Origin: Pontiellaceae bacterium B12227
Lineage (GTDB): Bacteria; Verrucomicrobiota; Kiritimatiellia; Kiritimatiellales; Pontiellaceae
Assembly (NCBI GenBank): GCA_029432775.1
Contig: JAROAZ010000002.1
Coordinates: 1 to 64,000 of the forward strand
DNA length: 64,000 nt
Reading direction: 5' to 3'
The notes under the pieces are model-generated. The model was given only the letters and a program-made list of their open reading frames with translations. It did no database searches and was not told the DNA's origin. Of this stretch, positions 4,263 to 63,447 are shown in pieces. The position numbers and the translations under genes were made by a program. Numbering within the stretch: position 1 is the first letter of the stretch; every line of letters starts with the position of its first letter.

Positions 4263-5398
4263 TGCGCAGCCTCCAGCAGTGTAACCATGGCGGTGGCCCC
4301 CGGCTGGACTTTCTGCACACCGTCCACCACCACCCGGTCGCCGGCCTTGAGTCCGGCCAGCGCCACAAAATTATCTCCGACCACCTGACCTGTCGTGACC
4401 CGGGCCGTGCCGACCAGACCTTCTTCATTCACCGTCAGCACATAACTGCCATCCAGATCCACCAGAATGGCCTGCTGCGGAACCACGAGCCCCATCGGGC
4501 GGTCGGGCTTCCCGAGCAGAATGGTCACGTAGCCGCCGGCCACGAGCATTTCGTCGGGATTATCAAACAGATAGCGCACGGCCATGGTTCCGGTTCTGGA
4601 ATTCATGGTGTTGTCGTCGAAATCTTTTTTTCCAACCATTGGAAGAACGGTTCCGTTCGGGAGCCGTGCGTGCGCCACCAGGCCGGCGGCTTCGCCATTG
4701 AGCACTCTGGCGCGCAGGTTCAGGAAGGCGCGGTCGGTCAGCGAGAACGCAACGCGGATCGGGTCGAGCTGCACAATGGTGGCCAGTGCTTCGGTTCCGG
4801 AATCCACATAGTTGCCTTTCGTGACCCGTGCCGCGCCAATGCGGCCGCTGATCGGCGCACGGATTTCAGAATAGGAAAGGTCGAGCTGCGCAATATTCAA
4901 ATTCGCTTCGGCCTGTTTCAGATTCGCCACGCCCTGGAGCTGCAGCGCAATGGCCTGGTCCTTGTCGGATTGAGAGACACTGCCGCCGGCCTTCTGGATC
5001 CGCTCGAGATATTTATCCGCGCGGTTCAACTCGGCTTTTGCACTCGCCAGGTCGGCTTCGCGCGCTTCCACCATGGCGGTATAACGTTTCTGATCCACTG
5101 TAAAGAGCAGGTCGCCCGCATTCACCATGGCACCTTCGGTGAAATGCACCTGGTCGAGATAGCCGGAGACTTCCGCTTTCACCATGACCATCTGGACCGG
5201 TTCGACCGTGGCAATATATTCATCCAGCACATCCAGCGGCACGGGCTGCAGCTCCACCGCTTTCACAGCCGGAGGCGGCATTTCACCCATCCCCATCATG
5301 CCCATCGGCGGCGGGCCGGACGGCAGGAATCCGCGAACAACGAAACCCAGGACAATGCCCAGAATGAATCCAACAATGATACCGATCTGTTTCAGCAT
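4259..5398 (-). CDS. RND periplasmic adaptor (membrane fusion protein), AcrA type
   Basis: A 379-residue adaptor with an N-terminal membrane anchor or signal (residues 5-25), a Gly/Pro/Met-rich linker, lipoyl-like half motifs ([23 protein letters not shown]), an alpha-hairpin and a beta-barrel domain. It would bridge the AcrB-type pump encoded next to it and an outer-membrane channel. A good AGGAG lies before the ATG. The 174-bp gap upstream of it is the largest in the operon and could hold a second promoter. One copy of the dispersed 15-bp palindrome lies in the gene (4630-4644), read as LPMVGK. Confidence 0.94.
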
Positions 5399-5572
5399 TT
5401 CTCTTCTCCTAAGCTATTTTCTGTGAGCACAAAACGGCCCCGGCAGATGTAATAGGGTGTGTAGACGCAATGGAACCGTATTCCCCGGCATTTCACAACC
5501 CGTTTTTCCATGCATATAAGCGGCCGTTTCCAGGGATTGGAAGGCGCAATTCTGAAGGGCGGTTGATAAAGC

Positions 5573-5830
5573 CTACCAGTCGAGCTGCCCGTCGCGTTCC
5601 AATGTCTGGATAAATGCAAACAGCACAATGGAACCGACCAGGCTCAAGCCCAGCAGGGAGGAAATCAGCAAAGCCGACCAGCCGAACGATACGCCGGTCC
5701 GCGCGGCCAGATGATGCGGCAGCGTATTTCCAACCATTGGAAAAATGGACCAGATCAAACCGAGAACAAATATCCCAAGCAGTGCAAAAGCAAACGTACC
5801 GATGCTCCAGATGGCAATTTTACGCTTCAT
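5573..5830 (-). CDS. Small two-helix membrane protein inside the efflux operon
   Basis: An 85-residue protein with two strong hydrophobic segments (about residues 7-29 and 50-73) and short charged ends. I do not recognise a family. It lies 24 bp downstream of the TolC-like gene and 174 bp before the second adaptor, so co-transcription is likely. A small accessory subunit of an RND pump, comparable in kind to AcrZ, is possible, but nothing in the sequence proves it. A 15-bp palindrome copy at 5728-5742 encodes FPMVGN between the helices. Confidence 0.7.
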   Translation of the reverse strand: MKRKIAIWSIGTFAFALLGIFVLGLIWSIFPMVGNTLPHHLAARTGVSFGWSALLISSLLGLSLVGSIVLFAFIQTLERDGQLDW

Positions 5831-5854
5831 ACGATTGCTCTTCCCGCATGGGAA

Positions 5855-7162
5855 TCAAAGATCCTCGAGCACCCGGCCGGTTTCGATATCGAGCTGATTG
5901 AGGGTGAGCTGATAGGCAATGTAGGCCCGGGAATAGGCGCCGCGGGCGCGGGTCAGATCGGTCTGAGCTTCATTCAACCGGGTGATGGAAGCCGCACCGG
6001 CTTTGTAGGCTTTCTCCACACTGTCGCGCACCTGGATGGAGAGCTCGTGAATCTTTCCCTGGCGTTCATACACCGCCATGGCCGTAACCGCTTCGTCGAT
6101 GCGGCGGCGCAGGGAGGAGCGAATGGATAGGCGCAGCGATTCCTGCTGCTCTTCCAATGCCCGCATTTCTGCATAAATCTCCTTAACCGTATTCGCTTTC
6201 CGCCCGCCGGTGAAAAGATCCCAGCTGGCCGCAACGCCCACAAACGAGTCGTAGTTTCCATGCTGCCCGGAATTGGCATAGCCTTCGCGGTCTGCATAGT
6301 TGATGTCGCCGGTCAGGGCAATTTTCGGATACATGTCGCCTTTGGCCACGCGGACCTGCTGCGCCATCATTAGCTGACCGCTCTTCACGGCTTTATAATC
6401 CGGCCGGTGGGCAAGCGCATATTCCAGCTCGCTCGCCAGCTGCGGCGCAGCCGTTAGTGTATTGAACGCAATGGCGGCCGGGCACATTGATTCCGGCAGG
6501 ATGGCATCGGGCAGGGCCATCAGTTCGGCCAGCACCGCGCGGGCGGTATCGTACTCGAGCCGCGCCTGTAGCGCAGCGCTTTCGGCCTGCAGAGCGCGAA
6601 TGGAAAAGTTATGCACATCCGCTTCCGGCAAGGCCCCGGCCTCGAAGCGTTTGCGGGCGTCGTCTTCCAGATTCGTATTGAATGAAAAATCGCGTTCAGC
6701 AATCTCGACCCCTTCCCGGGCAAGCTGCGCCTGGCGGAACGAAACTGTGGCCGAAAGAATCAGCAGCCGGTTGGTTTCTTCCGACAGTTCGTGCGACTGC
6801 TGCACACCCAGGTCGGCTCCCAGTGTACGGGCGCGGCGGGCAAAGCCATCGAACAACAGCCAGTTGGCCTGCATGCCGGCAGAACCCTGCTTGAAGCTGT
6901 CGCTATAGCGTGTGGTTGGATCGATGTCCGGATGAAGACTCGCGTCGATATGCCCATAGCTGCCGGTCATGGTAATGGTCGGCAGATAGGCGGACTTCGC
7001 CTGCCTCAGCACCGCCTCGGCCGCCGCAACCCGCTGCAGCGATTCGCGGACGGACGGATTACCGGCGAGCACCATGGCGCGCGTTTCCGCCAGCGTCAGT
7101 CCATTGGTCTGCGCCGTTCCAAGCATTGGAACAAGTAAGGTCAGTAAAATCAGTTTTTTCAT
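5855..7162 (-). CDS. TolC-family outer-membrane efflux channel
   Basis: A 435-residue outer-membrane efflux protein with signal peptide (residues 1-18, ending near GTAQT) and two repeated coiled-coil/strand halves typical of TolC/OprM. Examples are the LAETRAMVLAGNPSVRE start and the C-terminal DLTRARGAYSRAYIAYQLTLNQ segment. It forms the exit duct for the RND pumps. It is the only outer-membrane channel gene in an operon with two adaptors and two pumps, so it is probably shared. AGGAG precedes the ATG. A palindrome copy lies within the signal-peptide coding region (7117-7131). Confidence 0.93.
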   Translation of the reverse strand: MKKLILLTLLVPMLGTAQTNGLTLAETRAMVLAGNPSVRESLQRVAAAEAVLRQAKSAYLPTITMTGSYGHIDASLHPDIDPTTRYSDSFKQGSAGMQANWLLFDGFARRARTLGADLGVQQSHELSEETNRLLILSATVSFRQAQLAREGVEIAERDFSFNTNLEDDARKRFEAGALPEADVHNFSIRALQAESAALQARLEYDTARAVLAELMALPDAILPESMCPAAIAFNTLTAAPQLASELEYALAHRPDYKAVKSGQLMMAQQVRVAKGDMYPKIALTGDINYADREGYANSGQHGNYDSFVGVAASWDLFTGGRKANTVKEIYAEMRALEEQQESLRLSIRSSLRRRIDEAVTAMAVYERQGKIHELSIQVRDSVEKAYKAGAASITRLNEAQTDLTRARGAYSRAYIAYQLTLNQLDIETGRVLEDL

Positions 7163-7199: not shown

Positions 7200-10100
7200 C
7201 TACAGATGGGTTTTATCGACCTTGACGCGATAGACGAGGGTGTAGACCACCGGCACCACAATCAGCGTCAGGAAGGTGGCGGCAAAGAGACCGCCCATAA
7301 TCGTGATGGCCATGCCCGAATAGAGCGCGTCAGCCAGAAGCGGTGCCATGCCGAGAATGGTGGTTCCGGCGGCCATCATGACGGGGCGCATACGGCTGAC
7401 GGATGAATCGAGCACGGCTTTATAGGGCTCGACGCCACGGGTCAGCTGCAGTTCTATTTCATCGATCAGCACCACGGCATTTTTAATCAGCATGCCGGAG
7501 AGCCCCAGAAAGCCGAGGATCGACATAAAACCGAACGGCAGGCCGGTGAGCAACAGGGCCGCAGTTACTCCGATGATGGACAGCGGTACGGTCATGAAAA
7601 TAATGAGCGGCCGGCGCACGGAGTTAAACAGCCAGATCAGGATGACAAACATTCCGAGCAGACAGATCGGGAACGTGGCTGCCAGGGGCGCCTGGGCTTC
7701 GGCCGACTCCTCAAATTCGCCGGCCCATTCGAAACGGTAGCCTGGCGGCAGTTCAAGGTCTTCGATCTGCGTGGCCAGCTTCCGGCGCAGCGTGTCCGGC
7801 AGACCCACCACGGGATTACAGCGGGCCGTGATGGAGTTACGGCGGTCACGCCGCATGATATAGGGCCATTCCCATTCGCTGTTCATTCCGGTCACGACCT
7901 GACCGACCGGAATAAAGGCCTGGTTCACGGAGCTCCAAACCTGCACATCATCAAAGTTTTCAATAGAGGTGCGTTCGGATTCCGGCGGACGGAACATGAT
8001 GGGGATCAGCTCGTTCCCTTCGCGGTAGAGCCCGACGGGCATGCTGTTGAAGTTCAACTGAAGCGACTGCGCCAGATCGGAACGGGTTACCCCCACCCTG
8101 CGCGCCTGTGTTTCAGAAAACTCCGGACGCAGCACTTTCACGCGCTGGCGCCAGTCGAGACGGGCATCCTTCGCGGTCGGCTCGGCCTGCATGATTTCCA
8201 ATGCCTGGAAACCCAGCTTTTCAAGCACTACTTTATCGGGGCCGAAGAAACGGGCCTCCACATAAAAGGCAAGCGGCGGGCCGTTCGGGATGGTGCTGCA
8301 ATAGGGCTCGGCCGACGGATAGTTTTCTTTGAGATACACCTCGATGTCTTCCACCAGTCCGGGAATATCGTGATAGTCATCGGTCTCGATGAGAATCATT
8401 CCATAGCTCGGGTCGGCCGTTTCGTAGTTATACGAAAGCATGAAGCGCAGCGTGCCCTCGCCGGCAAAGGCGCTGGTCTGCTTGACGCCGTCAAGCGAGC
8501 GGATATATTCATCGATCGACGCAAGATCAGAAGCCGTGCGGTCAATGTGCGCGCCGGCCGGCAGCCAGTAGTTCACATAAAAATAGGGCGTCGGCGATCC
8601 CGGGAAAAAGGCCTGCGGAACTTTCTTAAACCCGGCCATCGCAGCAATCAACAGCACCACCGTGATCAGGATCGTGATCAGACGATGATGAATCGTGAGG
8701 TGCAGGACGTTGCGGTAGCGGCGGAACATGGGTTTATCGTACGGGTCTTCACCATGCGTATCCGGAATCTTCAGGAACCAGACGCAGAAGAGCGGCGTGA
8801 TGGTTACGGCCAGAATCCAGCTGAAGAGCAGGGAAATGGTCATGACATAAAAGAGCGAGCGGCAGAACTCGCCGATATTCCCCGGCGCAAAGCCGATGGC
8901 CGTGAAGGCCAGAATAGAAATAAAGGTGGCTCCGAGCAGCGGCCACTGGGTGTCGCGCACGACTTCCTGCGCCGCCTCTTCGCGCCCCTCTCCCCGCTCC
9001 ACGCGGATCAGGATTCCATCGGCCACCACAATCGCATTATCCACCAGCATCCCGAGCGCAAGAATCAGCGCGCCCAGCGAAATTTTCTGGAGGGTGATGT
9101 CCATGACGTGCATACCGAGCAGTGTTCCGCAAATGTTAAGCAACAGTACGGCACCGATGAGCAGGCCGCTCTGCCATCCCATGAAAAACATCAGCAGCAC
9201 CACCACAATAACCACCGCTTCAATCAGGTTGAGCACAAAACCGTCCACGGATTCGACCACCATTTCACTCTGGTAATAAATGGAATCAAGCTCCATGCCT
9301 TCGGGGCGGGTCTGTTCCAGCTCGGCCAGCTTCAACTTGACCGATTCACCCATGGTGACGACGTTTCCGCCCACAATGGTGGATACGCCGAGGGCAATGG
9401 CCGGCTTGCCGTTGAAGGTCATTTTATTTCGGGCCGGATCGTAGTACCCGCGTTTAATCTCGGCAATATCGCCCAGACGCACCAGCTGGTTTCCGCCTCC
9501 AACGTAGAGGTCGGCAATCACCTGCTCACTGGCAAAATCGCCGGTCGGTGTGATGCGGATATAATTTCCATCAATCTCGACTTTCCCGCTCGACTGCACC
9601 GCATTCTGCGACTGCAGGGTGCCGGCAATCATATTGGGAGAAAGGCCGAGCTCGGTAATTTTTGCGCGCTCGAATTCCACATAGACCACTTCCTGCTGCA
9701 GTCCCCAGAAGGCAATCTTGGCGACATCGTCGCAGGAGAGCAGTTCAGTTTTCAGGTCTTCGGCATAGGCTTTCAGCTCGGCATAGGAATAGTCCTCTCC
9801 GGTCAATGCAAAGAAGACCCCATACACATCGCCGAAGTCGTCGTTGACAATCGAGGGACCGGCACCGGGCGGAAGCTGACCCTGCATGTCGCCGATCTTC
9901 TTGCGCAGCTCATCCCAGATCTGCGGCAACTGTGTGCTCTTGAAGGAGTCCTGCACATCAACATAGACAATTGAAAGTCCATCCATCGAAGTGGAGTAGA
10001 CCTCCTTCAGCTGGCTCATCGACTGGATGGCTTCTTCGATCGGGTCGGTGACCTCCTCTTCCACTTCCGTCGGACTGGCACCCGGATACTGGGTGACCAC

Positions 10101-17290: not shown

Positions 17291-17363
17291 GATCCGGATT
17301 CTTCACGTTCTCTCTTCCAAGGTTTGGAACAAATACAGGAAAGCAGCAGAGTAGAAAATAAGA

Positions 17364-17394
17364 AAGGCCGGTTCCAGAAACTGGAACCGGCCTT
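17364..17394 (-). terminator. Strong hairpin terminator after tRNA-Gly
   Basis: A perfect 14-bp stem (17364-17377 with 17381-17394) closes a 3-nt loop. On the minus strand it is followed by a T-rich run. It lies 7 bp past the 3' end of tRNA-Gly. The upper part of the stem is itself a copy of the dispersed palindrome (TTCCAGAAACTGGAA, 17372-17386). Confidence 0.85.
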
Positions 17395-22880: not shown

Positions 22881-23437
22881 GTTTCATCCTCAGTCTTCTT
22901 CAGCTTTAAAACCAGGACGCGCGTTTTGCCATAGCGTTTGTCACGCATGATGTTCCAATCACTGGAAACCACGGGATCGCCCTTTGAACGCATCTCGTAT
23001 ACCAGTATTCCGTCGGGAGTCAAAACCGAATGCTCAACGATTCCCTCGAGCGTATGCTGCATGGCACCGGGAAGGTCGTAAGGCGGGTCGGCCAGAATCA
23101 GATCAAACGTCGCCCCGGCCCGGCTCAGCCACTGGATGGCATCTGACTTGAATACCCTGGTTCCACCGAGCGCCTCGCTTTCCAATGATTGGATATTTTT
23201 CTGCAGGTTTTTCCAGACCTTGGCATGCTGCTCCACAAAAGTGACCGTATCCGCACCGCGGCTCCAAGCCTCCATTCCCAATGCTCCGGAGCCGGCAAAC
23301 AGATCCAACACCTTCAAGCCTTCCACGCTGCCGAGCGACGAAAAAATCGCCTCGCGCACCGACTCCATAGTCGGTCGCACTTCGCTGTCGGGCACTTCGA
23401 ATCGCCGGTTCCGCAATATTCCACTCGTAATTCTCAT
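22877..23437 (-). CDS. rsmD: 16S rRNA m2G966 methyltransferase
   Basis: A 186-residue SAM-dependent methyltransferase with the SAM motif LDLFAGSGALGMEAWSRGA (about 44-62) and the catalytic ADPPYDLP motif (about 115-122). It modifies G966 of 16S rRNA in the small subunit. It is the first gene of the rsmD-coaD pair, divergent from the PaaX-type regulator. Two palindrome copies lie in it: an exact one (22953-22967, read SSDWN) and a near copy (23180-23194, read IQSLE). Confidence 0.95.
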   Translation of the reverse strand: MRITSGILRNRRFEVPDSEVRPTMESVREAIFSSLGSVEGLKVLDLFAGSGALGMEAWSRGADTVTFVEQHAKVWKNLQKNIQSLESEALGGTRVFKSDAIQWLSRAGATFDLILADPPYDLPGAMQHTLEGIVEHSVLTPDGILVYEMRSKGDPVVSSDWNIMRDKRYGKTRVLVLKLKKTEDET

Positions 23438-23497
23438 TCCACCACCCTACCGAAATTTCCAAGCACTGGAACCCAAATCAAATCTCAATTCCACCAC

Positions 23498-24519: not shown

Positions 24520-25608
24520 ATGGCGTATAAAAAACATAGAGAGTCGCTGAAGAACGCGAAACGAGTGGTGGTCAAAGCGGGCAGTAAAGTCCTGGTGGAG
24601 AGCTCCGGCCGGCCGGATGACCGCCAACTCAAGCTGCTGGTCGACGAGCTTGCCACCTTCCACAAAAACGGCGGTGAAGTGGCCTTTGTTTCGTCGGGAG
24701 CGGTAGGTGCCGGACTGGATGCGCTGGGCCTGAAAACTCGTCCGAAGGAAGTTCAGGACCTGCAGATGGCGGCGGCCGTTGGTCAGATCTGCCTGATGAG
24801 TGTTTACAACGATCTCTTCCGAGCGAATGAAATCGGGATTGGCCAGGTCCTGCTGACCCATGACGGGCTGAAAGACCGGGAGCGACATCTGAATGCCCGT
24901 AATACCCTTTTGAATCTGATCGCGAACCGCATTGTTCCGATCATTAATGAAAACGATGCTGTTTCAGCGGAAGAGATTAAGTTTGGTGATAATGATGTAC
25001 TGGCCGCGCTGGTGGCGATTCTGATCGATGCGGATGCGTTGGTACTGCTGAGCACGACGGATGGACTGCGCGACGAAGATGACAACCGGGTCTCCTATAT
25101 AGAGGAGGTCGATAACGATGTGCTCGAGCTGGTGAGCGATACGGCCGATAAACTTTCTACCGGCGGCATGGCTTCTAAATTAAATTCGGCGCAGATTGCC
25201 GCACATAACGGCGTACCTGTGGTGATCGCCGATGGCCGCAAGGCGGAGGTGCTTACCCGAATCTTTGCAGGCGAGGACGAAGGCACCCTACTGTTTCCAA
25301 AGGCTGGAAACATTTCAAAACGTAAACGATGGATCGCATTCTTCAACCGGGCTGAAGGCCGGGTGTTGGTGGATGACGGAGCCGTTGAGGCCATGCGCTC
25401 AGGCAGCAGTCTGCTCCCGGTCGGCATTAAAGAGGTCCAGGGCAGCTTTCAAGTTGGAGCCATGGTGGATGTCGAATCATTGAGCGGTGATCATGTTGCG
25501 AGCGGGCTGGTTGAATATGCCAGCGATGAAATCGAAACGCTCAAGGGGCAGAAAACCTCGGGCAAGTCCGGTGAGGTAATTCACCATGACAATATGGTAC
25601 TACTTTAA
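24520..25608 (+). CDS. proB: Glutamate 5-kinase with PUA domain
   Basis: A 362-residue enzyme for the first step of proline synthesis, phosphorylating glutamate. The amino-acid kinase domain shows VVVKAGSKVL (16-25), VSSGAVGAG (about 57-65), NENDAVS and FGDNDVLAALVA; the C-terminal PUA domain covers about 275-350. Proline is also a common compatible solute. The ribosome binding site is weak. It is 14 bp upstream of proA, and the long palindrome lies in its promoter region. A palindrome copy (25295-25309) encodes FPKAGN at the linker to the PUA domain. Confidence 0.96.
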   Translation: MAYKKHRESLKNAKRVVVKAGSKVLVESSGRPDDRQLKLLVDELATFHKNGGEVAFVSSGAVGAGLDALGLKTRPKEVQDLQMAAAVGQICLMSVYNDLFRANEIGIGQVLLTHDGLKDRERHLNARNTLLNLIANRIVPIINENDAVSAEEIKFGDNDVLAALVAILIDADALVLLSTTDGLRDEDDNRVSYIEEVDNDVLELVSDTADKLSTGGMASKLNSAQIAAHNGVPVVIADGRKAEVLTRIFAGEDEGTLLFPKAGNISKRKRWIAFFNRAEGRVLVDDGAVEAMRSGSSLLPVGIKEVQGSFQVGAMVDVESLSGDHVASGLVEYASDEIETLKGQKTSGKSGEVIHHDNMVLL

Positions 25609-25622: not shown

Positions 25623-26879
25623 ATGGATATTAATGAACAGGTTTTAAAAATCGGAGCGGATGCCAAAGCGGCAAGCCGCGAACTCGCAAAACTGTCCACC
25701 CGCAAGAAAAATTCGATTCTTGAAGCGATGGCGGATGAGCTGGATGCACAGCGCATCTTTATTCAGGAAGAGAATGCCAAGGATCTGGTCGCCGGGCGCG
25801 AAGCCGGACTGACCAACGCCATGCTGGACCGGCTGGAACTGACCGACGACCGCATTGACAGCATGATTAAGGGGTTGCGCGATGTCGCCGTTCTGACGGA
25901 TCCGGTCGGCGAGCAGATCAGCACCTGGAACCGCCCGAATGGACTGGAAATTCATAAGCGGCGCGTTCCGATCGGTGTAATCGGCATTATTTTTGAGTCG
26001 CGCCCGAATGTGACCTGCGATGCCGCCGCGCTCTGCTTTAAAACCTCCAACGCGGTGATTCTGCGTGGAGGCAAGGAAGCCATTCATTCCAATCTCGCCA
26101 TTGCCTCAGCCATGCAAAAAGGCGGCGAGACCAAAGGGATGCCGGCAAACTGCATTCAGCTGATTCCCACGATTGATCGTGAAGCGGTGAAGGTCATGTG
26201 CCAGATGGTGGGTTATCTGGACCTGATTATTCCACGCGGCGGCGAAAGCCTGATCCGGGCAGTAATGCAAATGGCGCACGTTCCTGTGATTAAACACTAC
26301 ACCGGCGTCTGCCACACCTACATCGATGCCTCTGCCAACCTTTCCATGGGCTGGAAGATTGCGGAGAATGCCAAGTGCCAGCGCCCGGGCGTATGTAATG
26401 CCATGGAAACTTTGTTGGTGCATCGCGATGTTGCAGCTGAGTTCCTGCCGAAGATGGGTGAAATTCTTACTGAACAGAAAGTGGAAATGCGAGGCGACGC
26501 AGCCACCTGTGCACTCATTCCTTCAGCCATTGCCGCCACGGAAGAGGACTGGAGCACGGAGTATGTTGACCTGATCCTTTCTATTAAAGTGGTCGATGGG
26601 GTAGAAGCCGCCATTCAGCACATCAATACATACGGATCGGGCCATTCGGATGCGATTATTTCCGAAGATGAGAAAGCAACGGTTCAGTTTCTGAACGAAG
26701 TCGATGCGGCCACCGTGTACGTGAATGCATCAACCCGCTTCACAGATGGGGCCGAGTTCGGAATGGGAGCTGAAATCGGCGTAAGCACCGATAAACTTCA
26801 TGCGCGCGGCCCCATGGGACTCGAAGAGCTGACTACCTATAAGTATGTGGTTGAAGGTAAGGGGCAGATCCGGGAATAA
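25623..26879 (+). CDS. proA: Gamma-glutamyl phosphate reductase
   Basis: A 418-residue aldehyde-dehydrogenase-fold enzyme that reduces gamma-glutamyl phosphate to the semialdehyde with NADPH. It has the family motifs PIGVIGIIFESRPNVTCDAA (about 117-136), the KHYTGVCHTYID region and the catalytic Cys segment CQRPGVCNAMETLLVH. AAGGAT precedes the ATG. It forms an operon with proB; proC is not in the window. A hairpin terminator follows inside the convergent gene. Confidence 0.97.
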   Translation: MDINEQVLKIGADAKAASRELAKLSTRKKNSILEAMADELDAQRIFIQEENAKDLVAGREAGLTNAMLDRLELTDDRIDSMIKGLRDVAVLTDPVGEQISTWNRPNGLEIHKRRVPIGVIGIIFESRPNVTCDAAALCFKTSNAVILRGGKEAIHSNLAIASAMQKGGETKGMPANCIQLIPTIDREAVKVMCQMVGYLDLIIPRGGESLIRAVMQMAHVPVIKHYTGVCHTYIDASANLSMGWKIAENAKCQRPGVCNAMETLLVHRDVAAEFLPKMGEILTEQKVEMRGDAATCALIPSAIAATEEDWSTEYVDLILSIKVVDGVEAAIQHINTYGSGHSDAIISEDEKATVQFLNEVDAATVYVNASTRFTDGAEFGMGAEIGVSTDKLHARGPMGLEELTTYKYVVEGKGQIRE

Positions 26880-29331: not shown

Positions 29332-29748
29332 CTACATCGCCGTATTGAAAGAGAGATTTCCAACCTTTGCAGCGGCGCAGGCGTCCATGACCGAAATGAT
29401 GGCCCCGTGCATTGTTTGATCAGCCGGCAGAATGCTGACCGACATTTTGCTGCCGGAGGCAACGGCCACCGTTTTCAGAAGTTCCAACCGTTGGAAAAGT
29501 AGATCACCGTCTGCAAAGCGCTCTCCCTCGATGGTCACCTCGCCGTCGGGAGCTATTTCAACCACTAAATCAATTGCACGGTCTGAGAGCGATTGATCGG
29601 GCAGCGGAAGCTGAAAGGAAAGGTCGGCCTCTTTCTTAATCAGGGATGACGTCACCATAAAATAGACCAGTAACAGAAAAACAACGTCGATCAGCGATGC
29701 CATCGGCATCTCCTTTTTACGGTTCAGCACTTCAGCAACAGCCTTCAT
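29332..29748 (-). CDS. ExbD/TolR-family energy-coupling protein
   Basis: A 138-residue protein with one membrane helix (about residues 17-37) carrying the functional Asp (MASLIDVVFLLLVYFMVTSS) and a periplasmic C-terminal domain. With an ExbB/TolQ partner such proteins couple the proton gradient to outer-membrane transport. No exbB, tolQ, tonB or TonB-dependent receptor is in the window, so it is an orphan here. It lies 17 bp after the permease-EIIA gene with a good AGGAG site, so the two are probably co-transcribed. A palindrome copy (29482-29496) encodes FQRLE. Confidence 0.88.
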   Translation of the reverse strand: MKAVAEVLNRKKEMPMASLIDVVFLLLVYFMVTSSLIKKEADLSFQLPLPDQSLSDRAIDLVVEIAPDGEVTIEGERFADGDLLFQRLELLKTVAVASGSKMSVSILPADQTMHGAIISVMDACAAAKVGNLSFNTAM

Positions 29749-37863: not shown

Positions 37864-39195
37864 TTACCTAACCCGCCGGTTTAAAACAATCAGCACGATG
37901 GTCCAGATTGTGATGGCCGCCATGGCGATGCCGAAAATCGGCCAGCCGCCCCAAAGGGCAAGCAGCGGAATGGCGGCCCCGGTCCAAAGGCCGCCGCCCA
38001 TAAAGGGTTCGTGCAGCAGCTGCTTGGCGGCAAACGCCTCCGCGGCTTCGGTTTCATAGTCGGGATCCACCACGCGCAGGAGCAGAAGTCCAGTGGCGGT
38101 TACGCCCATGGACTGTCCCATTTCGGCAATGCCGCGCTCGAACCAGGCATCTTTAAAGGCTAGGCGTGCGAAGACCGTCAACATCAGCACATTCCACAGA
38201 ATCCCGGCCAGAATCAGGACAACAATCGGAACCCACTGCTGCGCCACGACATCAATCCGGATGGTGGCAATGGCGGCGACCACCAGAAAATCGAGCGCGC
38301 AGTTCTGAATGCGCAGCATGAGCCCTTCATCCATATGTTCGTGCGGATCGAACTTGTCGGCCAGCAGCTGGACAATGACTCCGCCCAGCATGCAGAGCGG
38401 GAAGAGCGGAAAGCTTTGAAAAATATCACTTCCAGACCCTGGAAGCCGGGCGGCCAGCAAAAGCAGGCCCTGTTTCATCAGCCAGCCGAGCACAATGGCC
38501 GCGCCCACAAAAACCAGATGCAGCGAAAGCGAGCCGATGACATCGGACGAAACCGTAACTTTTCCAGCCATTGGACGATGCTCATGGGGAATGATGCCGC
38601 TAAAGTCCTCATCACTAACGCCCGGTTTCGCCTTCCTTTTCACATGGCCTTTTCGAACGGCCCAGTTGACCAGTCCCATTCCGACGATGATGGCACCCAT
38701 GATTCCGCCGGTGGCGGCAGCGAGAGCGTAGTCCTTCATTTCGGAATAGCCTAACTCGTCGAACACGGGCCCCATGCCGCCGGCGGTGCCGTGGCCGCCT
38801 TCGAAGCCGACAGGCATGATGCCCGAAAAAATATCGGGCAAACCGAAGATCGGTTTGAGCAATAACAGCACCACAAAACAGCCGACCGCATATTGGCCCC
38901 AGGCCACAATCTGGCCATAGGCCAGTTGGCGGCTGGAACTTTTCCAGACTCTGGAAACCGGCGGCAGCGCGGTGCCGAGAAAAAGGCAGGCAAAGACAAT
39001 GTTGATCAACTGCCCCGGCAGCTTGTTCCAGCCTTTGGAAACTTCGGCCGGGACTTCCAGCGTCTGGAAAAGCAGCAGGCCGAGCAGGCCGGCAATGACG
39101 CTGGCCGGGAGATAGAGTTTCTGCAGCAGTACGATCTTGCGGCGCAGCCAATAGCCAAGCCCAAGCAACAGACACAAACATCCGAATGAAAGCAT
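37864..39195 (-). CDS. GltS-family sodium:glutamate-type symporter
   Basis: A 443-residue membrane protein with ten to twelve helices and the GltS hallmark GFEGGHGTAGGMGP (about 145-158), repeated in weaker form in the C-terminal half as the family requires. It should import glutamate or a related acid with sodium. GGAGG precedes the ATG. It is unusually rich in the dispersed palindrome: four exact copies (38430, 38942, 39026, 39055) and one near copy (38562), coding for LPGSGS, SRVWKS, SKGWNK, FQTLEV and RPMAGK. Confidence 0.9.
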   Translation of the reverse strand: MLSFGCLCLLLGLGYWLRRKIVLLQKLYLPASVIAGLLGLLLFQTLEVPAEVSKGWNKLPGQLINIVFACLFLGTALPPVSRVWKSSSRQLAYGQIVAWGQYAVGCFVVLLLLKPIFGLPDIFSGIMPVGFEGGHGTAGGMGPVFDELGYSEMKDYALAAATGGIMGAIIVGMGLVNWAVRKGHVKRKAKPGVSDEDFSGIIPHEHRPMAGKVTVSSDVIGSLSLHLVFVGAAIVLGWLMKQGLLLLAARLPGSGSDIFQSFPLFPLCMLGGVIVQLLADKFDPHEHMDEGLMLRIQNCALDFLVVAAIATIRIDVVAQQWVPIVVLILAGILWNVLMLTVFARLAFKDAWFERGIAEMGQSMGVTATGLLLLRVVDPDYETEAAEAFAAKQLLHEPFMGGGLWTGAAIPLLALWGGWPIFGIAMAAITIWTIVLIVLNRRVR

Positions 39196-44065: not shown

Positions 44066-45049
44066 TCAGGGGGCCACGTAGCCGAAATCGACCAGAAGTT
44101 TCTGATAGAGCGCCTTTTTATCCGGATTTTTCATCCATTCTTCCAACTCTGTAATCGCGTTGATCTGCTCCCGGGTACGCATATTCTCATAGGCCTTAAG
44201 CATCGAAACAAAGGCCTCAAATTCGCCGCCGTGCTCCAGCTCCCCTGGAATCACCACCTTAAGCATCCCGGCAAAATAGGCCGCCATCAGCAGATCCGCA
44301 TTTTTCGGTTTGCTGTAATTCTGGGGCCAGACAAACAGAGCATCATAGATATTGAGCTCGCCAAACGTCTGGGATTTGGCAAACACCCGCTGTGCGGCCG
44401 AACGGCCGCTGAAGTCCGCCGGGTTATTCACCAGGGCATCGCACGCCGCCAGGATCAGATCATCCTCGGAATTTTTGGCAATCAGCATTAAAACCAGTTG
44501 TTTTACCAACTGATCTGCCATCACGCGGGCCTCTTTCCCTTTGGCCACATCGAACCGGAACTGGACTTTAATAAAGTTGTTGTGCGCCCCCGTCACATAG
44601 ACCGAATTGAACCGGGGCACAGAAACAGAGGCCCCGTCGGTATCCTTGATTTGCGAATATTGGAACACCGTGTTGGCGAATTGAAGCGGCGACTTTTTCG
44701 GCACCACCAGCGAGCCCCGCTTCTTCAGGTTTTCAATAATGCCGCCCTTCTGCTCCTTATTCATGAGCATTTCCACGCTCTGGAACATCATCTGCACTCC
44801 GTCGGCCTTATGGCCGTCGGCAATTTCCGGACGGCCCATGGTGAGCACCGACACTTCCACCTGAAATTCCGTACCGCGGGAATAAAAAACAGAATAACCC
44901 AGATCGTCGTTATCGTAATTTTCAACGGTATCGCACGCCATTCCGCCCAGCTGCTGTGGAAAAACAAGCCCCAGATCAAAATCAACGTGTGCGGTATCGG
45001 CCGCCGCCTGCATAGCGAGTACCCCTGCCAGAACAATAATCCATTTCAT
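44066..45049 (-). CDS. Hypothetical secreted protein
   Basis: A 327-residue protein with signal peptide (residues 1-17, cleavage near QAAAD) and a soluble, mixed alpha/beta mature part without Cys pairs or a recognisable motif. I do not recognise a family. GGGGG lies close to the ATG. It is on the minus strand, upstream of the autotransporter with a hairpin between them, and divergent from the flavoprotein gene. Confidence 0.72.
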   Translation of the reverse strand: MKWIIVLAGVLAMQAAADTAHVDFDLGLVFPQQLGGMACDTVENYDNDDLGYSVFYSRGTEFQVEVSVLTMGRPEIADGHKADGVQMMFQSVEMLMNKEQKGGIIENLKKRGSLVVPKKSPLQFANTVFQYSQIKDTDGASVSVPRFNSVYVTGAHNNFIKVQFRFDVAKGKEARVMADQLVKQLVLMLIAKNSEDDLILAACDALVNNPADFSGRSAAQRVFAKSQTFGELNIYDALFVWPQNYSKPKNADLLMAAYFAGMLKVVIPGELEHGGEFEAFVSMLKAYENMRTREQINAITELEEWMKNPDKKALYQKLLVDFGYVAP

Positions 45050-46426: not shown

Positions 46427-46510
46427 TGACCTCCGAAATTGCACCGAGATAGTTCTTCCAAACCATGGAAGTGGCGATACACTTTTACTAACGGGAAAGA
46501 GGATCTGACT

Positions 46511-48577: not shown

Positions 48578-48639
48578 AATAAATCCTCCACTCATTGGAA
48601 AAGAGCTTAGCGGGAACTTCCAGCGGTTGAAAGTGCGGA

Positions 48640-49536: not shown

Positions 49537-49650
49537 CTGCACCCCTTTCATATAACAGGCATCCTATCTCTAATTTCCGGCCAATGGAACTTTCGGCTCG
49601 CGTTTTTTCCAAGGTCTGGAAACATGCAGGAAGTTTAAGCGAGGATTGCC

Positions 49651-50253: not shown

Positions 50254-50666
50254 TGAGCACAGACCTGTTTGCCGATATGGTCCCGGCAAAGGCCATGCAG
50301 ATCGCCGTTTCCAAGCATTGGAAAAACGGGATTGAACTCTCTGCCCCGCTCGCCGCCAACCTGAATGATAAAGGAACGGCTTTCGCCGGTTCCATTTCCT
50401 CCATGCTCACCCTCGCCGGGTGGGCGCTGATCACCCATCAGCTCAACGAAGGCGGGGTCAGCGCGGAAGTCATGGTCGTGGAAAGTTCCGCGCACTATTC
50501 ATCTGCCGTCCGAACCGATCTCAAATCGGTCGCCGAAGTTTCCGAAGAGGAAATCGCCCGGGTTTTCCGGGAACTGGAAACCTGCGGACGCAGCCGGGTC
50601 CGCATCGAAAGCACCCTTCCCGGCCACGCCTCCATGACCGCCTCATTCGCGATCATCGCACCTTAA
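50253..50666 (+). CDS. YiiD C-terminal-type thioesterase domain protein
   Basis: A 137-residue hotdog-fold protein of the putative YiiD C-terminal thioesterase family. It has the LAANLNDKGTAFAGSISSML motif (about 30-49) and an ALITHQLNE helix. The GTG at 50253 is the likely start because it overlaps the carbonic anhydrase stop; upstream codons of the frame lie within that gene. The function is unknown, perhaps an acyl-thioesterase. A palindrome copy (50309-50323) encodes SKHWKN near the N-terminus. Confidence 0.82.
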   Translation: MSTDLFADMVPAKAMQIAVSKHWKNGIELSAPLAANLNDKGTAFAGSISSMLTLAGWALITHQLNEGGVSAEVMVVESSAHYSSAVRTDLKSVAEVSEEEIARVFRELETCGRSRVRIESTLPGHASMTASFAIIAP

Positions 50667-51573: not shown

Positions 51574-53229
51574 TTAACTCCTTATTAGTTGATTCGCCCG
51601 TTCTAACGCGGTGTCGATGGAGGGGCAAAAGTTTTCTGTGCCGACGTCCCCGAGGAAGCCGGACTTTTCGAATACCTGGCGCGGTTGTTTGTTCACACCG
51701 GAAAAGACGAGCTGGGTTCCCTGCTTTCGGCATTGCAGATGAAGCTGTTGAAGGTTGTGCAGTCCGGTGGCGTCGATGGCCGGCACGTTACGGGTCCGCA
51801 GAATCAGCACACGAATATTCTTATTGATCCGCCCCAGCGTATTCCAGAAGGTATCGACCATTCCAAAGAAAAACGGCCCCTCTATTTCATACACCTCGAC
51901 CCCTTTCGGGACTTCGCGCAGGGCAAAGGCCTGCGGATCCTCGGCAGAGTCTACATCGCCGATGACTGCATCGGTGATGACGCTGACGTTGGCAATTTCG
52001 GACATCCGCCGGATGAAGAGCAAGGCCGAGAGCACAATGCCCACCTCGACGGCTACGGTCAGATCGATCAGCACCGTCAGCAGGAACGTAAGGCCCAGTA
52101 CCAAACGGTCGCTGCGCGGTCCCTTCAGGATGGCCATAAAATGGTGGCGCTCGCTCATATTCCACGCCACGACCACCAGAATTCCGGCCAGTGCGGCCAG
52201 AGGAACCTGCTTGGCCAGCGGAGCAAACAGCAACAGCACCAGCGCCAGTGTGATTGCATGAATGATGCCGGCCAGCGGCGATCGCGCACCGCTTTTGACA
52301 TTGGCCGCTGTGCGCGCAATCGCACCGGTTGCCGGAATTCCGCCAAAGAAGGCCGAACCGAGATTGGCAATACCCTGAGCAATCAGCTCCGTATTCGGCC
52401 GGTGCTTCCCGCCGATCATCCCGTCGGCCACCGTGGCGGATAGCAGCGACTCAATCGCCGCCAGCATGGCCACCGTAAAGGCCGGAGCCACCAGATTCCG
52501 GAAATCGGAAATTCCAAGGTCTGGAAGTCCGGGGGCCGGAAGCATCCGCGGCAGGTCGCCGAAGCGGCTGCCGATGGTTTCGACATCCAAATGAAAGAGC
52601 GTCGCGGCGGCAGTTGTAACCAGCATGGCTATCAGCATACCGGGAACACGGGGGCACCACCGCCGCGACGCAGAAATAATTAAAATGGCTCCCACCCCGA
52701 GGAGGGCCGCCGCGGGCGAAACGGTTTCCAATGCTTGGAAAATCGCCGCCCATTTCGGAATAAAATCCGCGGGTACAGCTTCCATCTGCAAACCCAGCAG
52801 ATCTTTGATCTGCGTGGAAAAGATGACCACCGCAATGCCCGTCGTGAAACCGGTCGTTACGGGAAACGGGATAAACCGTATCAGCCCGCCGAGCCGGAAA
52901 ATACCGAACAGGATCAGCAGCACCCCCGCCATCAGCATACAGGCCACCAGGCCGTTGTAGCCATACTGCGCCATGATCCCGGCCACCAGCACCACAAACG
53001 CGCCGGTCGGTCCGCCGATCTGCACCCGGCTTCCGCCCAGCAGGGAAATCAGGAAACCCGCTACAATGGCGGTGAACAGACCCCGTTCGGGAGGAAGCCC
53101 GCTGGCAATGGCAAACGCCATGGCCAGCGGCAGGGCAATGATACCGACCGTAATCCCTGCCCCGACATCCGCCGCCAGTGTGGAACGGTTGTAGGTTTCT
53201 AATAAGGTGATCAGCTTCGGGCGGAACAT
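51574..53229 (-). CDS. SulP-family anion transporter with STAS domain
   Basis: A 551-residue inner-membrane carrier with ten to fourteen helices: the first-helix region ITVGIIALPLAMAFAIASGL, the GGSRVQIGGPTGAFV motif and a cytosolic STAS domain (about 440-551: VLILRTRNVPAIDATGLHN). SulP members move sulfate or, as BicA, bicarbonate with sodium. The neighbouring carbonic anhydrase and antiporters make bicarbonate a plausible substrate, but the sequence does not prove it. AAGGAG precedes the ATG. Palindrome copies at 52512 and 52726 encode LPDLGI and FQALET. Confidence 0.93.
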   Translation of the reverse strand: MFRPKLITLLETYNRSTLAADVGAGITVGIIALPLAMAFAIASGLPPERGLFTAIVAGFLISLLGGSRVQIGGPTGAFVVLVAGIMAQYGYNGLVACMLMAGVLLILFGIFRLGGLIRFIPFPVTTGFTTGIAVVIFSTQIKDLLGLQMEAVPADFIPKWAAIFQALETVSPAAALLGVGAILIISASRRWCPRVPGMLIAMLVTTAAATLFHLDVETIGSRFGDLPRMLPAPGLPDLGISDFRNLVAPAFTVAMLAAIESLLSATVADGMIGGKHRPNTELIAQGIANLGSAFFGGIPATGAIARTAANVKSGARSPLAGIIHAITLALVLLLFAPLAKQVPLAALAGILVVVAWNMSERHHFMAILKGPRSDRLVLGLTFLLTVLIDLTVAVEVGIVLSALLFIRRMSEIANVSVITDAVIGDVDSAEDPQAFALREVPKGVEVYEIEGPFFFGMVDTFWNTLGRINKNIRVLILRTRNVPAIDATGLHNLQQLHLQCRKQGTQLVFSGVNKQPRQVFEKSGFLGDVGTENFCPSIDTALERANQLIRS

Positions 53230-61642: not shown

Positions 61643-61659
61643 TTCTTCTGTTCGTTGTA

Positions 61660-62484
61660 TTATTTAAGTTCAAGCAGCGGTTTAATGATGTCGCGCAGCT
61701 GATGGGCGGTTTCCGTTGCGGCGTGGCTCTGAATAAACGGCAGGCCGGCATCGCACGCTTTTCCAATGGCTGGATCGATCGGCAGTTTTCCAAGGAATGG
61801 AACCCCGAAGTCGTTTGCCATTTTTTCGCCGCCGCCGGACTGGAAAATATTCACTACTTCACCGCATTTCGGGCACGCAAAACCACTCATATTTTCAACA
61901 ATCCCAAGCACCGGCATGGAAAGTTTACCGCAAAACGTCAGCGATTTGCGCACATCCACCGCAGCAACCTGTTGCGGGGTGGTTACAATCACTGCTCCGG
62001 TCGGCTCTTCAATCAGCTGACAGAGCGAAAGGGGTTCGTCGCCGGTGCCGGGCGGGCAGTCGATGATCAGATAATCCAGTTCGCCCCACTCCACATCGCC
62101 GAGGAACTGTTTAATGACCCCCATCTTCATGGGCCCGCGCCAGATAAAGGCTTCGTCCTCGTTCTGGCAGAGAAACCCGACCGACATCACCTTCAGGTTA
62201 CCGGCATAAATCGGGTCCACAGAATCGGCATTGGAGATCAGCGGAGCGGTTCCGAGCCCCAGCATGGTCGGGATACTCGGCCCGTGGATATCGACATCCA
62301 ACAGACCCACCTTTTTTCCGGCTTCGGCGAGCGAGGTGGCCAGGTTCACCGCCACGGTACTTTTGCCGACGCCGCCCTTGCCCGACAGTACACAGATTTT
62401 ATGTTTCACCTGCGCCATCCGCGCATTGATTTTACGTTGGTCCTCCGCAGGATCCACCTGCGGTTGAGCTACACATTCACTCAT
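61660..62484 (-). CDS. mrp: Mrp/NBP35-family Fe-S carrier ATPase
   Basis: A 274-residue P-loop protein with deviant Walker [11 protein letters not shown] (about 34-43), [18 protein letters not shown] (about 59-76), [16 protein letters not shown] and the paired-Cys motif CPKC (in GFACPKCGE) that holds a bridging Fe-S cluster. It delivers Fe-S clusters to apoproteins. GGAGAAGGAG precedes the ATG. Neighbours (NifX-like, Fe-S scaffold) agree with this role. Near-copies of the palindrome at 61761 and 61788 encode DPAIGK and VPFLGK. Confidence 0.94.
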
Positions 62485-62517
62485 CTTTTGTCTCCTTCTC
62501 CGTCAAACTTTCAACAC

Positions 62518-62574
62518 AAAGGCCGCAAAGAGCGCGAAGCCTATGAGTTGCTGCTTCGCGAGCTTTGCGACCTT
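62518..62574. repeat. GCAAAG-type intergenic hairpin
   Basis: A long near-perfect inverted repeat: CGCAAAGAGCGCGAAGC (62524-62540) faces GCTTCGCGAGCTTTGCG (62553-62569), with AAGG/CCTT extending it. It lies between the metallo-hydrolase stop and the mrp start and may attenuate or stabilise the transcript. Confidence 0.7.
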
Positions 62575-62604
62575 CTGTTAAAAATTCAGCAGTACATATT
62601 TTCG

Positions 62605-63447
62605 TTAAGGGTTCTGTAATTGGTAGCCGGCATAGCCGGTGTGGATTTCGGTGTTTAGGTTTTCTTTAAAATAGGTAATGGCGGCCTCGCCGGTGCAGTG
62701 GCACGGCACCATGAAGTCCGGCTTGAATTCTTTCAGAGCGGCGGTTGTGGCTTCGAGCCGCCCGGGCGATGCGTTTTTCAGATGAAACCCGCCGATGATT
62801 CCCCAGATCCGTTGATCACTACTGGCGCTTTGAATGTGGTTGATCGTATTGATCAGCCCGGAATGGCAGCAGCCGCAAACCACGAGCAAGCCCTTCGGTG
62901 TTTCAATCCACAGCGCCATATCGTCTTCAATCGGGTCAGGCTCGGTGCCTTCGGGATCGGTGAAAAACGGACCGCCGACATCTTCCAATGGTTGGAAACG
63001 CGGAATCGGACCGGTCATCCAGACACCGCTTGAAATCTGCGTCGGTTTCCGGATCCACTTGAGCTGCGAGTCGAGCAGGTTGGCCACCACCAGCCGCTCC
63101 TCCGAAGGCATCGAAATCTCTTTCGGATCCTTGCCGGGATAGATGCTGAAGCGCCGGCTGAAAATTTTCGGGTGGGCATAAACACAGACTTCCGGATTTT
63201 CCTGCAGTACAAAATCGATCGCGCCGGTGTGGTCGTAGTGCCCGTGGCTCAGCACAAAGGCATCGATGTGGGTCAGTTCAGTTCCGCGCGTGGCCAAGTT
63301 CCGCTCCAGTGCATCGTTCTGCCCGGCATCGAACAGCAACGTACGGCCGCCGACCTTAATCAGCATTGAAAGCCCATGCTCGGCCACCAGCCCTTCCGCC
63401 GCGTGATTGTCCACCAGAATTTCCAATGATTGGAACTCCGCACTCAT
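62605..63447 (-). CDS. MBL-fold metallo-hydrolase
   Basis: A 280-residue protein with the metallo-beta-lactamase motif SHGHYDHTGA (His68, His70, Asp72, His73) and later metal ligands in CCHSGLINTINH and VPCHCTG. It resembles the stand-alone group related to 7,8-dihydropterin synthase-like hydrolases. The start at 63447 overlaps the stop of the hotdog gene (ATGA). Palindrome copies at 62983 and 63421 encode FQPLE and FQSLE; the second covers residues 5-9. Confidence 0.9.
   Translation of the reverse strand: MSAEFQSLEILVDNHAAEGLVAEHGLSMLIKVGGRTLLFDAGQNDALERNLATRGTELTHIDAFVLSHGHYDHTGAIDFVLQENPEVCVYAHPKIFSRRFSIYPGKDPKEISMPSEERLVVANLLDSQLKWIRKPTQISSGVWMTGPIPRFQPLEDVGGPFFTDPEGTEPDPIEDDMALWIETPKGLLVVCGCCHSGLINTINHIQSASSDQRIWGIIGGFHLKNASPGRLEATTAALKEFKPDFMVPCHCTGEAAITYFKENLNTEIHTGYAGYQLQNP

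What the first reader, a model, noticed from the sequence alone, without database searches (positions are those of the whole stretch)
4630..63435. A highly iterated 15-bp palindrome, TTCCA-N5-TGGAA, of unknown function
Thirty exact copies are visible in 64 kb. Ten fixed bases should occur about 0.06 times in 64 kb at even base composition, so the excess is several hundredfold. The fixed bases extend to TTCCARNNNYTGGAA in almost all copies while the central three bases vary freely. It is short, symmetric, and has no associated gene, so it resembles a highly iterated palindrome such as HIP1 of cyanobacteria or the binding site of an abundant nucleoid, replication or methylation protein. I know of no description of this motif for such an organism.
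Basis: partly seen in the sequence, partly recalled or inferred. Interest (0 to 1): 0.88.

Follow-up and report, generated by a model that had tools for sequence, protein, structure and literature searches.

The report
Genome-wide conserved palindrome in Kiritimatiellia bacteria
A 15-letter mirror-symmetric DNA word is repeated hundreds to thousands of times in the genomes of many little-known bacteria of one class, is kept in place by natural selection even inside genes, and is often spaced by whole turns of the double helix, so it looks like the landing site of an unknown protein that works along the whole chromosome.

Summary
The window holds 32 exact copies of TTCCA-N5-TGGAA (chance 0.05); its Pontiella-like (Kiritimatiellia) genome holds 2,297 against 6 for the reversed pattern. 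Enrichment is patchy in the class (87 of 288 genomes with 40 or more copies, my count); none of 256 genomes of other classes exceeds 30.

New: (1) consensus (T)TTCCA-R-N-S-N-Y-TGGAA(A), C/G at the dyad in 124 of 129 sites, R/Y not covarying: protein-read DNA, not a hairpin. (2) Conserved in place: 39 of 53 alignments to motif-rich relatives keep all ten bases (5.4 expected), 1 of 29 to motif-poor ones. (3) Arrays at 31-32 or 22 bp, whole helical turns, largely between genes of any orientation in two genomes. (4) Equal counts on both skew arms of a closed genome, 48 and 48. (5) Eleven viral contigs carry phased pairs.

Best reading: sites of an unidentified homodimeric, cooperative, chromosome-wide protein. 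No reader was found; Lrp, AbrB-type and a phage XRE protein did not fit. DNA uptake is the main rival.

The parts
4630..4644 (.). site TTCCAACCATTGGAA, in gene 4259-5398(-)
5528..5542 (.). site TTCCAGGGATTGGAA, intergenic
5728..5742 (.). site TTCCAACCATTGGAA, in a short ORF 5573-5830(-)
7117..7131 (.). site TTCCAAGCATTGGAA, in gene 5855-7162(-)
8196..8210 (.). site TTCCAATGCCTGGAA, in gene 7200-10238(-)
17315..17329 (.). site TTCCAAGGTTTGGAA, intergenic
17372..17386 (.). site TTCCAGAAACTGGAA, the one window copy without C/G at the dyad; it sits in a longer hairpin beside a tRNA gene and may be an ordinary terminator
22953..22967 (.). site TTCCAATCACTGGAA, in gene 22877-23437(-)
23457..23471 (.). 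site TTCCAAGCACTGGAA, intergenic
25295..25309 (.). site TTCCAAAGGCTGGAA, in gene 24520-25608(+)
26342..26356 (.). site TTCCATGGGCTGGAA, in gene 25623-26879(+)
29482..29496 (.). site TTCCAACCGTTGGAA, in ORF 29332-29748(-)
31678..31692 (.). site TTCCAATGATTGGAA, intergenic
32820..32834 (.). site TTCCAGCGATTGGAA, in gene 32653-33366(-)
32892..32906 (.). site TTCCAAGGGTTGGAA, in gene 32653-33366(-); 31 bp from the one-mismatch copy at 32923
33158..33172 (.). site TTCCAATGGTTGGAA, in gene 32653-33366(-)
35241..35255 (.). site TTCCAGAGCTTGGAA, intergenic
38430..38444 (.). site TTCCAGACCCTGGAA, in gene 37864-39195(-); not kept in strain B12219
38942..38956 (.). site TTCCAGACTCTGGAA, in gene 37864-39195(-); conserved in place in B12219
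39026..39040 (.). site TTCCAGCCTTTGGAA, in gene 37864-39195(-); conserved in place in B12219 with a changed spacer
39055..39069 (.). site TTCCAGCGTCTGGAA, in gene 37864-39195(-); conserved in place in B12219
43890..43904. site TTCCAATGGTTGGAA, intergenic; B12219 has an exact copy here too, counted as gapped
44771..44785 (.). site TTCCACGCTCTGGAA, in gene 44066-45049(-); conserved in B1224 and B12219
45725..45739 (.). site TTCCAATGGTTGGAA, in gene 45179-46426(+) (HI0933-like); conserved in B1224 and B12219; in 14 other homologs 3-8 of the ten bases differ, without gaps in the MAFFT alignment
46456..46470 (.). site TTCCAAACCATGGAA, in ORF 46439-46882(+); conserved in B1224
49607..49621 (.). site TTCCAAGGTCTGGAA, intergenic; conserved in B1224 and in MAG OB10 (L007); 32 bp from the one-mismatch copy at 49575
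50309..50323 (.). site TTCCAAGCATTGGAA, in ORF 50187-50666(+); conserved in B1224 and B12219 with changed spacers
52512..52526 (.). site TTCCAAGGTCTGGAA, in gene 51574-53229(-); conserved in B1224
52726..52740 (.). site TTCCAATGCTTGGAA, in gene 51574-53229(-); conserved in B1224
61788..61802 (.). site TTCCAAGGAATGGAA, in gene 61660-62484(-)
62983..62997 (.). site TTCCAATGGTTGGAA, in gene 62605-63585(-)
63421..63435 (.). site TTCCAATGATTGGAA, in gene 62605-63585(-)
23180..23225 (.). pair of one-mismatch copies 31 bp apart (23180, 23211)
48586..48632 (.). pair of one-mismatch copies 32 bp apart (48586, 48618)

Best explanation
The palindrome is the binding site of an unidentified homodimeric DNA-binding protein that works along the whole chromosome of many Kiritimatiellia, most likely a sequence-specific nucleoid-organising protein. 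Each subunit reads one TTCCA arm in the major groove, the two arms lying one helical turn apart on one face. Dimers pack side by side at two or three helical turns (22 or 31-32 bp) into small cooperative assemblies. Shown: iteration, the dyad consensus, in-place conservation at the DNA level inside and outside genes, helical spacing, presence in gaps of every gene orientation, and no replichore difference in one closed genome. Inferred: a homodimeric reader, cooperativity, and a chromosome-organising role rather than promoter control.
For: 2,297 against 6 control sites in the genome. C/G at the dyad in 124 of 129 sites, and R6/Y10 assorting independently (AT 71, GT 22, AC 15, GC 10, other 11), which a hairpin would not give. 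Conservation in place: 39 of 53 site alignments to motif-rich relatives against 5.4 expected; over 45 ungapped alignments the arms are 93-100% and the dyad base 96% identical, positions 6, 7, 9 and 10 are 67-82%, like the flanks (64-89%); motif-poor relatives 1 of 29 against 1.7. By distinct sites, 24 of 26 are kept in at least one motif-rich relative and 1 of 19 in a motif-poor one. Spacing: pairs at 30-33 bp in G081 16 against 0.33 expected, in the own genome 8 against 0.66; 76 pair distances in five array-bearing genomes give a resultant of 0.91 at a 10.25-bp period. In G035 43 of 55 and in G089 22 of 28 sites lie between genes, in convergent, divergent and tandem gaps. The 25 commonest 14-mers of 464 kb of the genome are all parts of this motif.
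Against: No reader protein was found. In the own genome 95 of 129 sites lie inside genes and most stand alone; phasing of exact copies alone is weak (12 pairs, R 0.42, p 0.13 at 10.5 bp), and with one-mismatch copies modest (34 pairs, R 0.34, p 0.02). Exact sites carry about 24 bits where 11.4 would locate 2,297 sites, more than a plain binding site needs and compatible with a drive such as uptake. In G015, and in three of 54 pairs of G089, fillers are shared between arrays, so copying contributes there. Alignments of one site to several relatives, and distances within one array, are not independent.
Confidence: 0.5

Rival explanations
1. The motif is a DNA uptake signal: competent cells prefer DNA that holds it, so biased uptake and recombination spread and maintain it by substitution, in genes as well as between them.
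For: Hundreds to thousands of copies, many inside genes, in-place conservation, patchy distribution among relatives, and information in excess of need all fit a drive. A ComEC-type gene (PF03772) is present in 25 of 26 genomes looked at.
Against: ComEC is as common in motif-poor as in motif-rich genomes, so it does not discriminate. Helical spacing at 22 and 31-32 bp is not expected of an uptake signal. [quoted passage not shown] here the frames are 37, 35, 23 (p 0.16) and the in-gene position histogram is roughly flat.
Confidence: 0.17
2. A global transcription regulator with a very large regulon binds the sites at promoters.
For: Dyad of helix-turn-helix type; intergenic sites are over-represented 2.8-fold in the own genome (33 of 128 against 9.3%); arrays or clusters lie upstream of a gene that I read as pheS in three genomes of three families.
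Against: Most sites of the own genome are inside genes; intergenic sites are enriched in convergent as well as divergent gaps.
Confidence: 0.13
3. The sites are methylated or otherwise modified and act as an epigenetic or self mark, as discussed for HIP1 and its orphan methyltransferases.
For: Iterated palindrome across genes and intergenic DNA; viral contigs carry it too.
Against: Ten fixed plus several biased bases, about 24 bits, is far longer than usual methyltransferase sites (general knowledge), and helical spacing has no evident role in methylation. Methylation was not testable here.
Confidence: 0.1
4. A dispersed repeat (REP, BIME or MITE-like) that spreads by copying.
For: In G015 4.4% of filler pairs from different places are 80% alike or more against 0.9% in the null, and arrays L290 and L292 share a flank; G089 shows 3 of 54 against 0.2%, G066 1 of 12 and G104 1 of 17 against 0.
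Against: In G000, G081 and G035 no filler pair reaches 80% and in G023 the share equals the null. At window site 45725 homologs without the site align without a gap. Sites are shared in place by relatives at 74-81% identity. Of 13 gapped alignments to motif-poor relatives none shows a clean 15-bp insertion; one site (L036 10550) lies in a stretch absent from G151 and mostly from G071 and could be inserted.
Confidence: 0.06

Closest known systems
HIP1 (GCGATCGC) of cyanobacteria
   Same: Short palindrome iterated over the genome, patchy within one phylum, function unsettled (PMC4390886, abstract start and passages seen).
   Different: HIP1 is a contiguous octamer with orphan methyltransferases for internal sequences; this is a 5-5-5 dyad of about 24 bits with helically phased arrays and measured in-place conservation.
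DNA uptake sequences of Neisseriaceae and Pasteurellaceae
   Same: Hundreds to thousands of copies, many in genes.
   Different: Those have an orientation preference in the reading frame (PMC2346458, abstract); here the site is symmetric, without significant frame bias, and phased at 22 and 31-32 bp.
Nucleoid-associated proteins with a sequence motif, such as EspR
   Same: EspR binds sites inside and between genes, often clustered, with dimer-of-dimers assembly (PMC3315491, passages seen).
   Different: EspR has a loose TTTGC[TC][GA] motif and at least 165 bound loci; here the site is long, nearly invariant, with 2,297 exact copies, and no protein is known.
matS/MatP and parS/ParB
   Same: Dyads read by chromosome-organising proteins (recalled).
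   Different: Those are few and confined to terminus or origin (recalled); these are in all 20 samples of a closed chromosome.
REP/BIME intergenic repeats
   Same: Palindromes in clusters between genes.
   Different: No shared filler above the null in four of the six genomes with eleven or more fillers (G000, G081, G035, G023; shared in G015 and G089), and most sites of the own genome lie in genes.

Membership tests
Highly iterated palindromes (HIP1-like) | Genome-wide over-representation far above expectation | tested here: met
   2,297 against 6
Highly iterated palindromes (HIP1-like) | Contiguous GCGATCGC octamer | tested here: not met
   Two 5-bp arms with a fixed 5-bp spacer
Highly iterated palindromes (HIP1-like) | Orphan methyltransferase for an internal sequence | not tested
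   No methyltransferase survey was run
DNA uptake sequence | Competence channel gene present | tested here: inconclusive
   PF03772 in 25 of 26 genomes, rich and poor alike
DNA uptake sequence | Reading-frame or gene-terminus bias | tested here: not met
   95 in-gene sites: frames 37/35/23, p 0.16; position histogram roughly flat, not tested formally
DNA uptake sequence | Preferential uptake of motif-bearing DNA | not testable with these tools
   Needs a transformation assay
Nucleoid-associated protein site | Many dispersed sites, intragenic and intergenic, chromosome-wide | tested here: met
Nucleoid-associated protein site | An abundant protein that binds the sites | not testable with these tools
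   Reader not identified; Lrp and AbrB-type candidates did not fit
matS/MatP-type terminus organiser | Sites confined to one macrodomain | tested here: not met
   20 samples of 20 kb over the closed 3.88-Mb G081 hold 1-9 sites each; 48 on each skew arm
REP/BIME/MITE repeat | Copies of a longer unit with shared sequence between palindromes | tested here: not met
   Not met in G000, G081, G035, G023; partly met in G015 and G089; G006, G066 and G104 had seven or fewer fillers
RNA hairpin / terminator element | Paired bases covary beyond the arms | tested here: not met
   R6/Y10 independent; Rfam at gathering threshold finds only three tRNAs in the window

The most novel reading that the evidence does not exclude
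Kiritimatiellia possess a sequence-addressed bacterial chromatin: one homodimeric protein occupies up to two or three thousand fixed, selectively maintained 15-bp sites per genome, assembling as helically phased stacks at gene boundaries in some families and as mostly single in-gene anchors in Pontiella, and viruses of these hosts carry the same phased sites to be packaged into, or to subvert, that chromatin.
Probability: 0.3. Interest if true: 0.92.

Novelty: new variant of a known kind. Interest (0 to 1): 0.82.

Why it matters
Thousands of fixed sites under DNA-level selection, many of them inside genes, imply a chromosome-wide system that none of my seven literature searches turned up. Cultured members of Pontiella exist (PMC7356697, PMC10880615 in the listing), so it is testable by pull-down and ChIP. 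Motif-rich and motif-poor species within one genus give a natural loss experiment, and the system would put the old question of what iterated palindromes such as HIP1 do into an experimental setting.

Tried and rejected
Lrp/AsnC as reader: PF01037 is present in 125 of 145 genomes; the 20 without it have at most 15 sites (counts). But the same ortholog, with a closely similar helix-turn-helix region, sits in motif-rich (2,297 and 2,237 sites) and motif-poor (20 and 20) Pontiella genomes. Rejected as the discriminating factor, not as a possible partner.

AbrB/MazE-type (PF04014): found in 103 of 145 genomes, not in motif-rich G081, G120, G035, G015, G026 or G141; rejected.

Bro-N and KilA-N genes beside arrays in G114 and G081: each found only itself among 259 loci, 2.6 Mb; not pursued.

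Recurrent neighbour genes of 116 site clusters: the 15 largest protein groups shown name no DNA-binding family that recurs in hosts.

Phage XRE-like protein: found on three viral contigs (L084, L087, L091; Pfam HTH_3 over its cut-off in the last two only); in L084 and L087 the sites lie inside its gene. Searched with alignment A1 in 145 genomes: 51 with a match at E 0.01, many only to the peptide that the arrays themselves encode; no match in G000, G114, G120, G061 or G081, but in G000, G114, G120 and G081 only 30 of 38-78 candidates were scored, so absence there is not firm. Of nine loci checked seven matched by tblastn, and one of these (L262) has sites in the gene. Not supported as host reader.

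Alternative palindrome in motif-poor genomes: no strong excess among 5-bp arms with spacers 0-13 in 100 kb each of G071, G091 and G062.

Gene calling failed for G169 (no genes called), so it was dropped from the location counts.

Literature: seven searches gave no description of this motif; I saw passages of PMC4390886, PMC7356697 and PMC3315491, and the abstract and outline of PMC2346458. Most subscription papers are not held.
Full report
Observation. The pattern TTCCA-N5-TGGAA occurs 32 times in the window where dinucleotide shuffles give 0.05. Only the spacer of five is enriched. The whole genome (6.29 Mb, 206 contigs, 95% complete) holds 2,297 copies against 6 for the pattern read backwards. 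The nearest named relatives by a window protein are Pontiellaceae bacteria B1224 and B12219, so the organism is a Pontiella-like member of the Kiritimatiellia.

Distribution. In 288 genomes of the class, 87 by my hand count of the table have 40 or more copies, in 13 of 50 families: 21 of 28 of the own genus (range 5 to 2,297), the one other genome of the family, 14 of 14 of a second family of the order, and 51 members of eleven further families, with a maximum of 3,209 in G089. The others have 0-39, most of them in the range of the reversed control. Of 256 genomes of other classes of the phylum none exceeds 30; a few reach 20-30 against reversed counts of 0-10, and one (G329) has 0 against 55. 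The trait is thus widespread in the class and has been lost or weakened repeatedly, also within one genus (inference).

Anatomy. In 464 kb of the own genome (window plus 200 kb each of two other contigs) 129 sites give (T)TTCCA-R-N-S-N-Y-TGGAA(A). The dyad base is C or G in 124 of 129. Positions 6 and 10 are purine and pyrimidine but do not covary as base pairs (AT 71, GT 22, AC 15, GC 10, other 11). One-mismatch copies are also in excess (147 against 4-17 for six control patterns), as are two-mismatch copies (308 against 74-242). Exact sites carry about 24 bits; 11.4 would locate 2,297 sites. The 25 commonest 14-mers of this sample are all parts of the motif. In the smaller sample the commonest mismatches were A at position 1 and G at position 5.

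Place. In the own genome 95 of 129 sites lie in genes (89.8% of positions do), and 33 of 128 between genes against 9.3% expected (p 5e-8), with tandem, divergent and convergent gaps all enriched; no significant codon-frame bias (p 0.16) and a roughly flat position histogram along genes. In G035 43 of 55 and in G089 22 of 28 sites lie between genes, in all three orientations; in G066 10 of 13, from two arrays. In the closed G081 chromosome 20 samples of 20 kb hold 96 sites (98 expected from the whole), mean 4.8, variance 6.7, with 48 sites in the ten samples of positive and 48 in the ten of negative GC skew. Gene calls are from my own simple codon-usage caller, not from an annotation pipeline. 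Names such as pheS, trpF and topA below are my reading of the sequences, not a database result.

Spacing. Matches to two sites with 0-30 bp between them number 1,359 in G089, 434 in G211, 338 in G066, 290 in G035 and 277 in G169, and 0 for the reversed control in all 15 genomes searched; one of the 15 (motif-poor G022) had none. Start-to-start distances cluster at 31-32 bp, also 22, 42, 62 and 84: 76 distances in five array-bearing genomes give a resultant of 0.91 at 10.25 bp (distances within one array are not independent). In G081 exact plus one-mismatch sites give 16 pairs at 30-33 bp against 0.33 expected, in the own genome 8 against 0.66, in the window 4 against 0.22. In the own genome exact copies alone phase weakly (12 pairs, p 0.13). 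A six-site array with 30-32 bp steps exists in the own genome on contig C162.

Selection. At window site 45725 two relatives keep the site and fourteen other homologs have 3 to 8 of the ten bases changed, without a gap in the MAFFT alignment; in L009, for example, FDWLK is coded where the window codes FQWLE. Over three reference stretches (window, L036, L251) and nine comparisons with motif-rich genomes, 39 of 53 site alignments keep all ten arm bases where the 15-mer background predicts 5.4; eight of the 53 have a gap in or at the site, and in five of those eight the relative still has an exact copy there. In seven comparisons with motif-poor relatives 1 of 29 is kept where 1.7 is expected; 13 of the 29 are gapped, mostly by a few bases, none a clean 15-bp insertion. 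By distinct reference sites, 24 of 26 are kept in at least one motif-rich and 1 of 19 in a motif-poor relative. Per position, over 45 ungapped alignments, arms are 93-100% identical and the dyad base 96%, while positions 6, 7, 9 and 10 (67-82%) behave like the flanks (64-89%). The grouping of L007-L010 as motif-poor was mine, from 0 or 1 site in 13-21 kb; L007 holds the one kept site. One site, L036 10550, lies in a stretch absent from G151 and mostly from G071 and could be an insertion. Across families, a pair inside a trpF-like gene is shared by a Pontiella genome (G209) and G081, and arrays or clusters stand upstream of a pheS-like gene in G015, G007 and G114.

Spread by copying or by substitution. 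Among sequences between phased sites, no pair reaches 80% identity in G000 (44 pairs), G081 (53) or G035 (136), and in G023 the share equals the column-shuffled null (0.25% against 0.21%); mean identities are within about 0.03 of the null in these four. In G015 4.4% of pairs reach 80% against 0.9%, and two arrays share a flank; in G089 3 of 54 do against 0.2%; G066 (1 of 12) and G104 (1 of 17) are small. The own-genome set includes four stretches that I had chosen for their arrays. So copying contributes in some lineages, but not measurably in the own genome.

Viruses. Twelve stretches on eleven viral contigs carry two sites 31-32 bp apart. On three contigs a small XRE-like protein is coded, and on two of these the sites lie inside its gene, between the helix-turn-helix and a C-terminal stretch that looks like a coiled coil. 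Its matches in host genomes do not follow motif abundance (with the scoring limit told under Tried and rejected). That viruses carry the host's sites suggests that the sites matter to any DNA that lives in these cells; that step is inference.

Mechanism. Two 5-bp arms one turn apart, an S at the dyad, R/Y neighbours and whole-turn packing are what a homodimeric helix-turn-helix or similar protein with side-by-side contacts would leave. Spread along the whole chromosome, indifference to orientation and in-gene sites speak for chromosome organisation over promoter control. This is inference until the protein is known. Lrp and AbrB-type candidates did not fit. DNA uptake remains the main rival, because the in-place conservation, the excess information and the patchiness also fit a drive; ComEC presence does not decide.

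Novelty. Searches for the motif, for palindromes in Kiritimatiellia and for Pontiella papers found no description. The kind (a highly iterated palindrome) is known from cyanobacteria; the dyad form, helical arrays, occurrence through a class and measured in-place conservation are new as far as these searches go.

Noticed in passing
window 17372-17386 and L241 6201-6269 (G000 contig C206): Some sites form the stem of terminator-like hairpins (GGCCGG-site-CCGGCC beside a tRNA gene; AAAGGG...site...GCCCTTTTTT), as uptake sequences are recalled to do in other bacteria.
   Followed up: partly
L198 50-179 and 264-8523 (G161): A five-site array (one 22-bp and three 31-bp steps, mostly TTCCATTGTGTGGAA) stands upstream of genes for a protein without a Pfam match, a DUF3800 protein and a DUF1156 DNA methylase, which looks like an antiviral defence operon.
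   Followed up: partly
L243 5501-6582 (G114) and L244 5610-6810 (G081): A Bro-N gene flanked on both sides by three-site arrays, and a KilA-N gene beside a three-site array next to a gene that I read as topA.
   Followed up: partly
L084 3188-3580, L087 6675-7046, L262 1498-1827: XRE-like proteins (two viral, one from genome G050) in whose genes the palindromes lie and code part of the linker.
   Followed up: partly
L092 (G000 contig C55 41236-41460): Most genomes of the class have one Lrp ortholog whose helix-turn-helix region is rather acidic and may not bind DNA; the 20 of 145 genomes without PF01037 are all motif-poor.
   Followed up: partly
L036 8125-8200 and L251 3360-3440: Other short repeats shared by Pontiella genomes (a GTGAGGC tandem run; a hairpin with CGACGAGGGCG arms).
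   Followed up: no
window 8211-17314 and 52741-61787: Two 9-kb stretches without an exact site; 20-kb stretches of the genome hold 0-9 (mean 4.85, variance 7.6), so density is uneven, perhaps marking acquired DNA.
   Followed up: no
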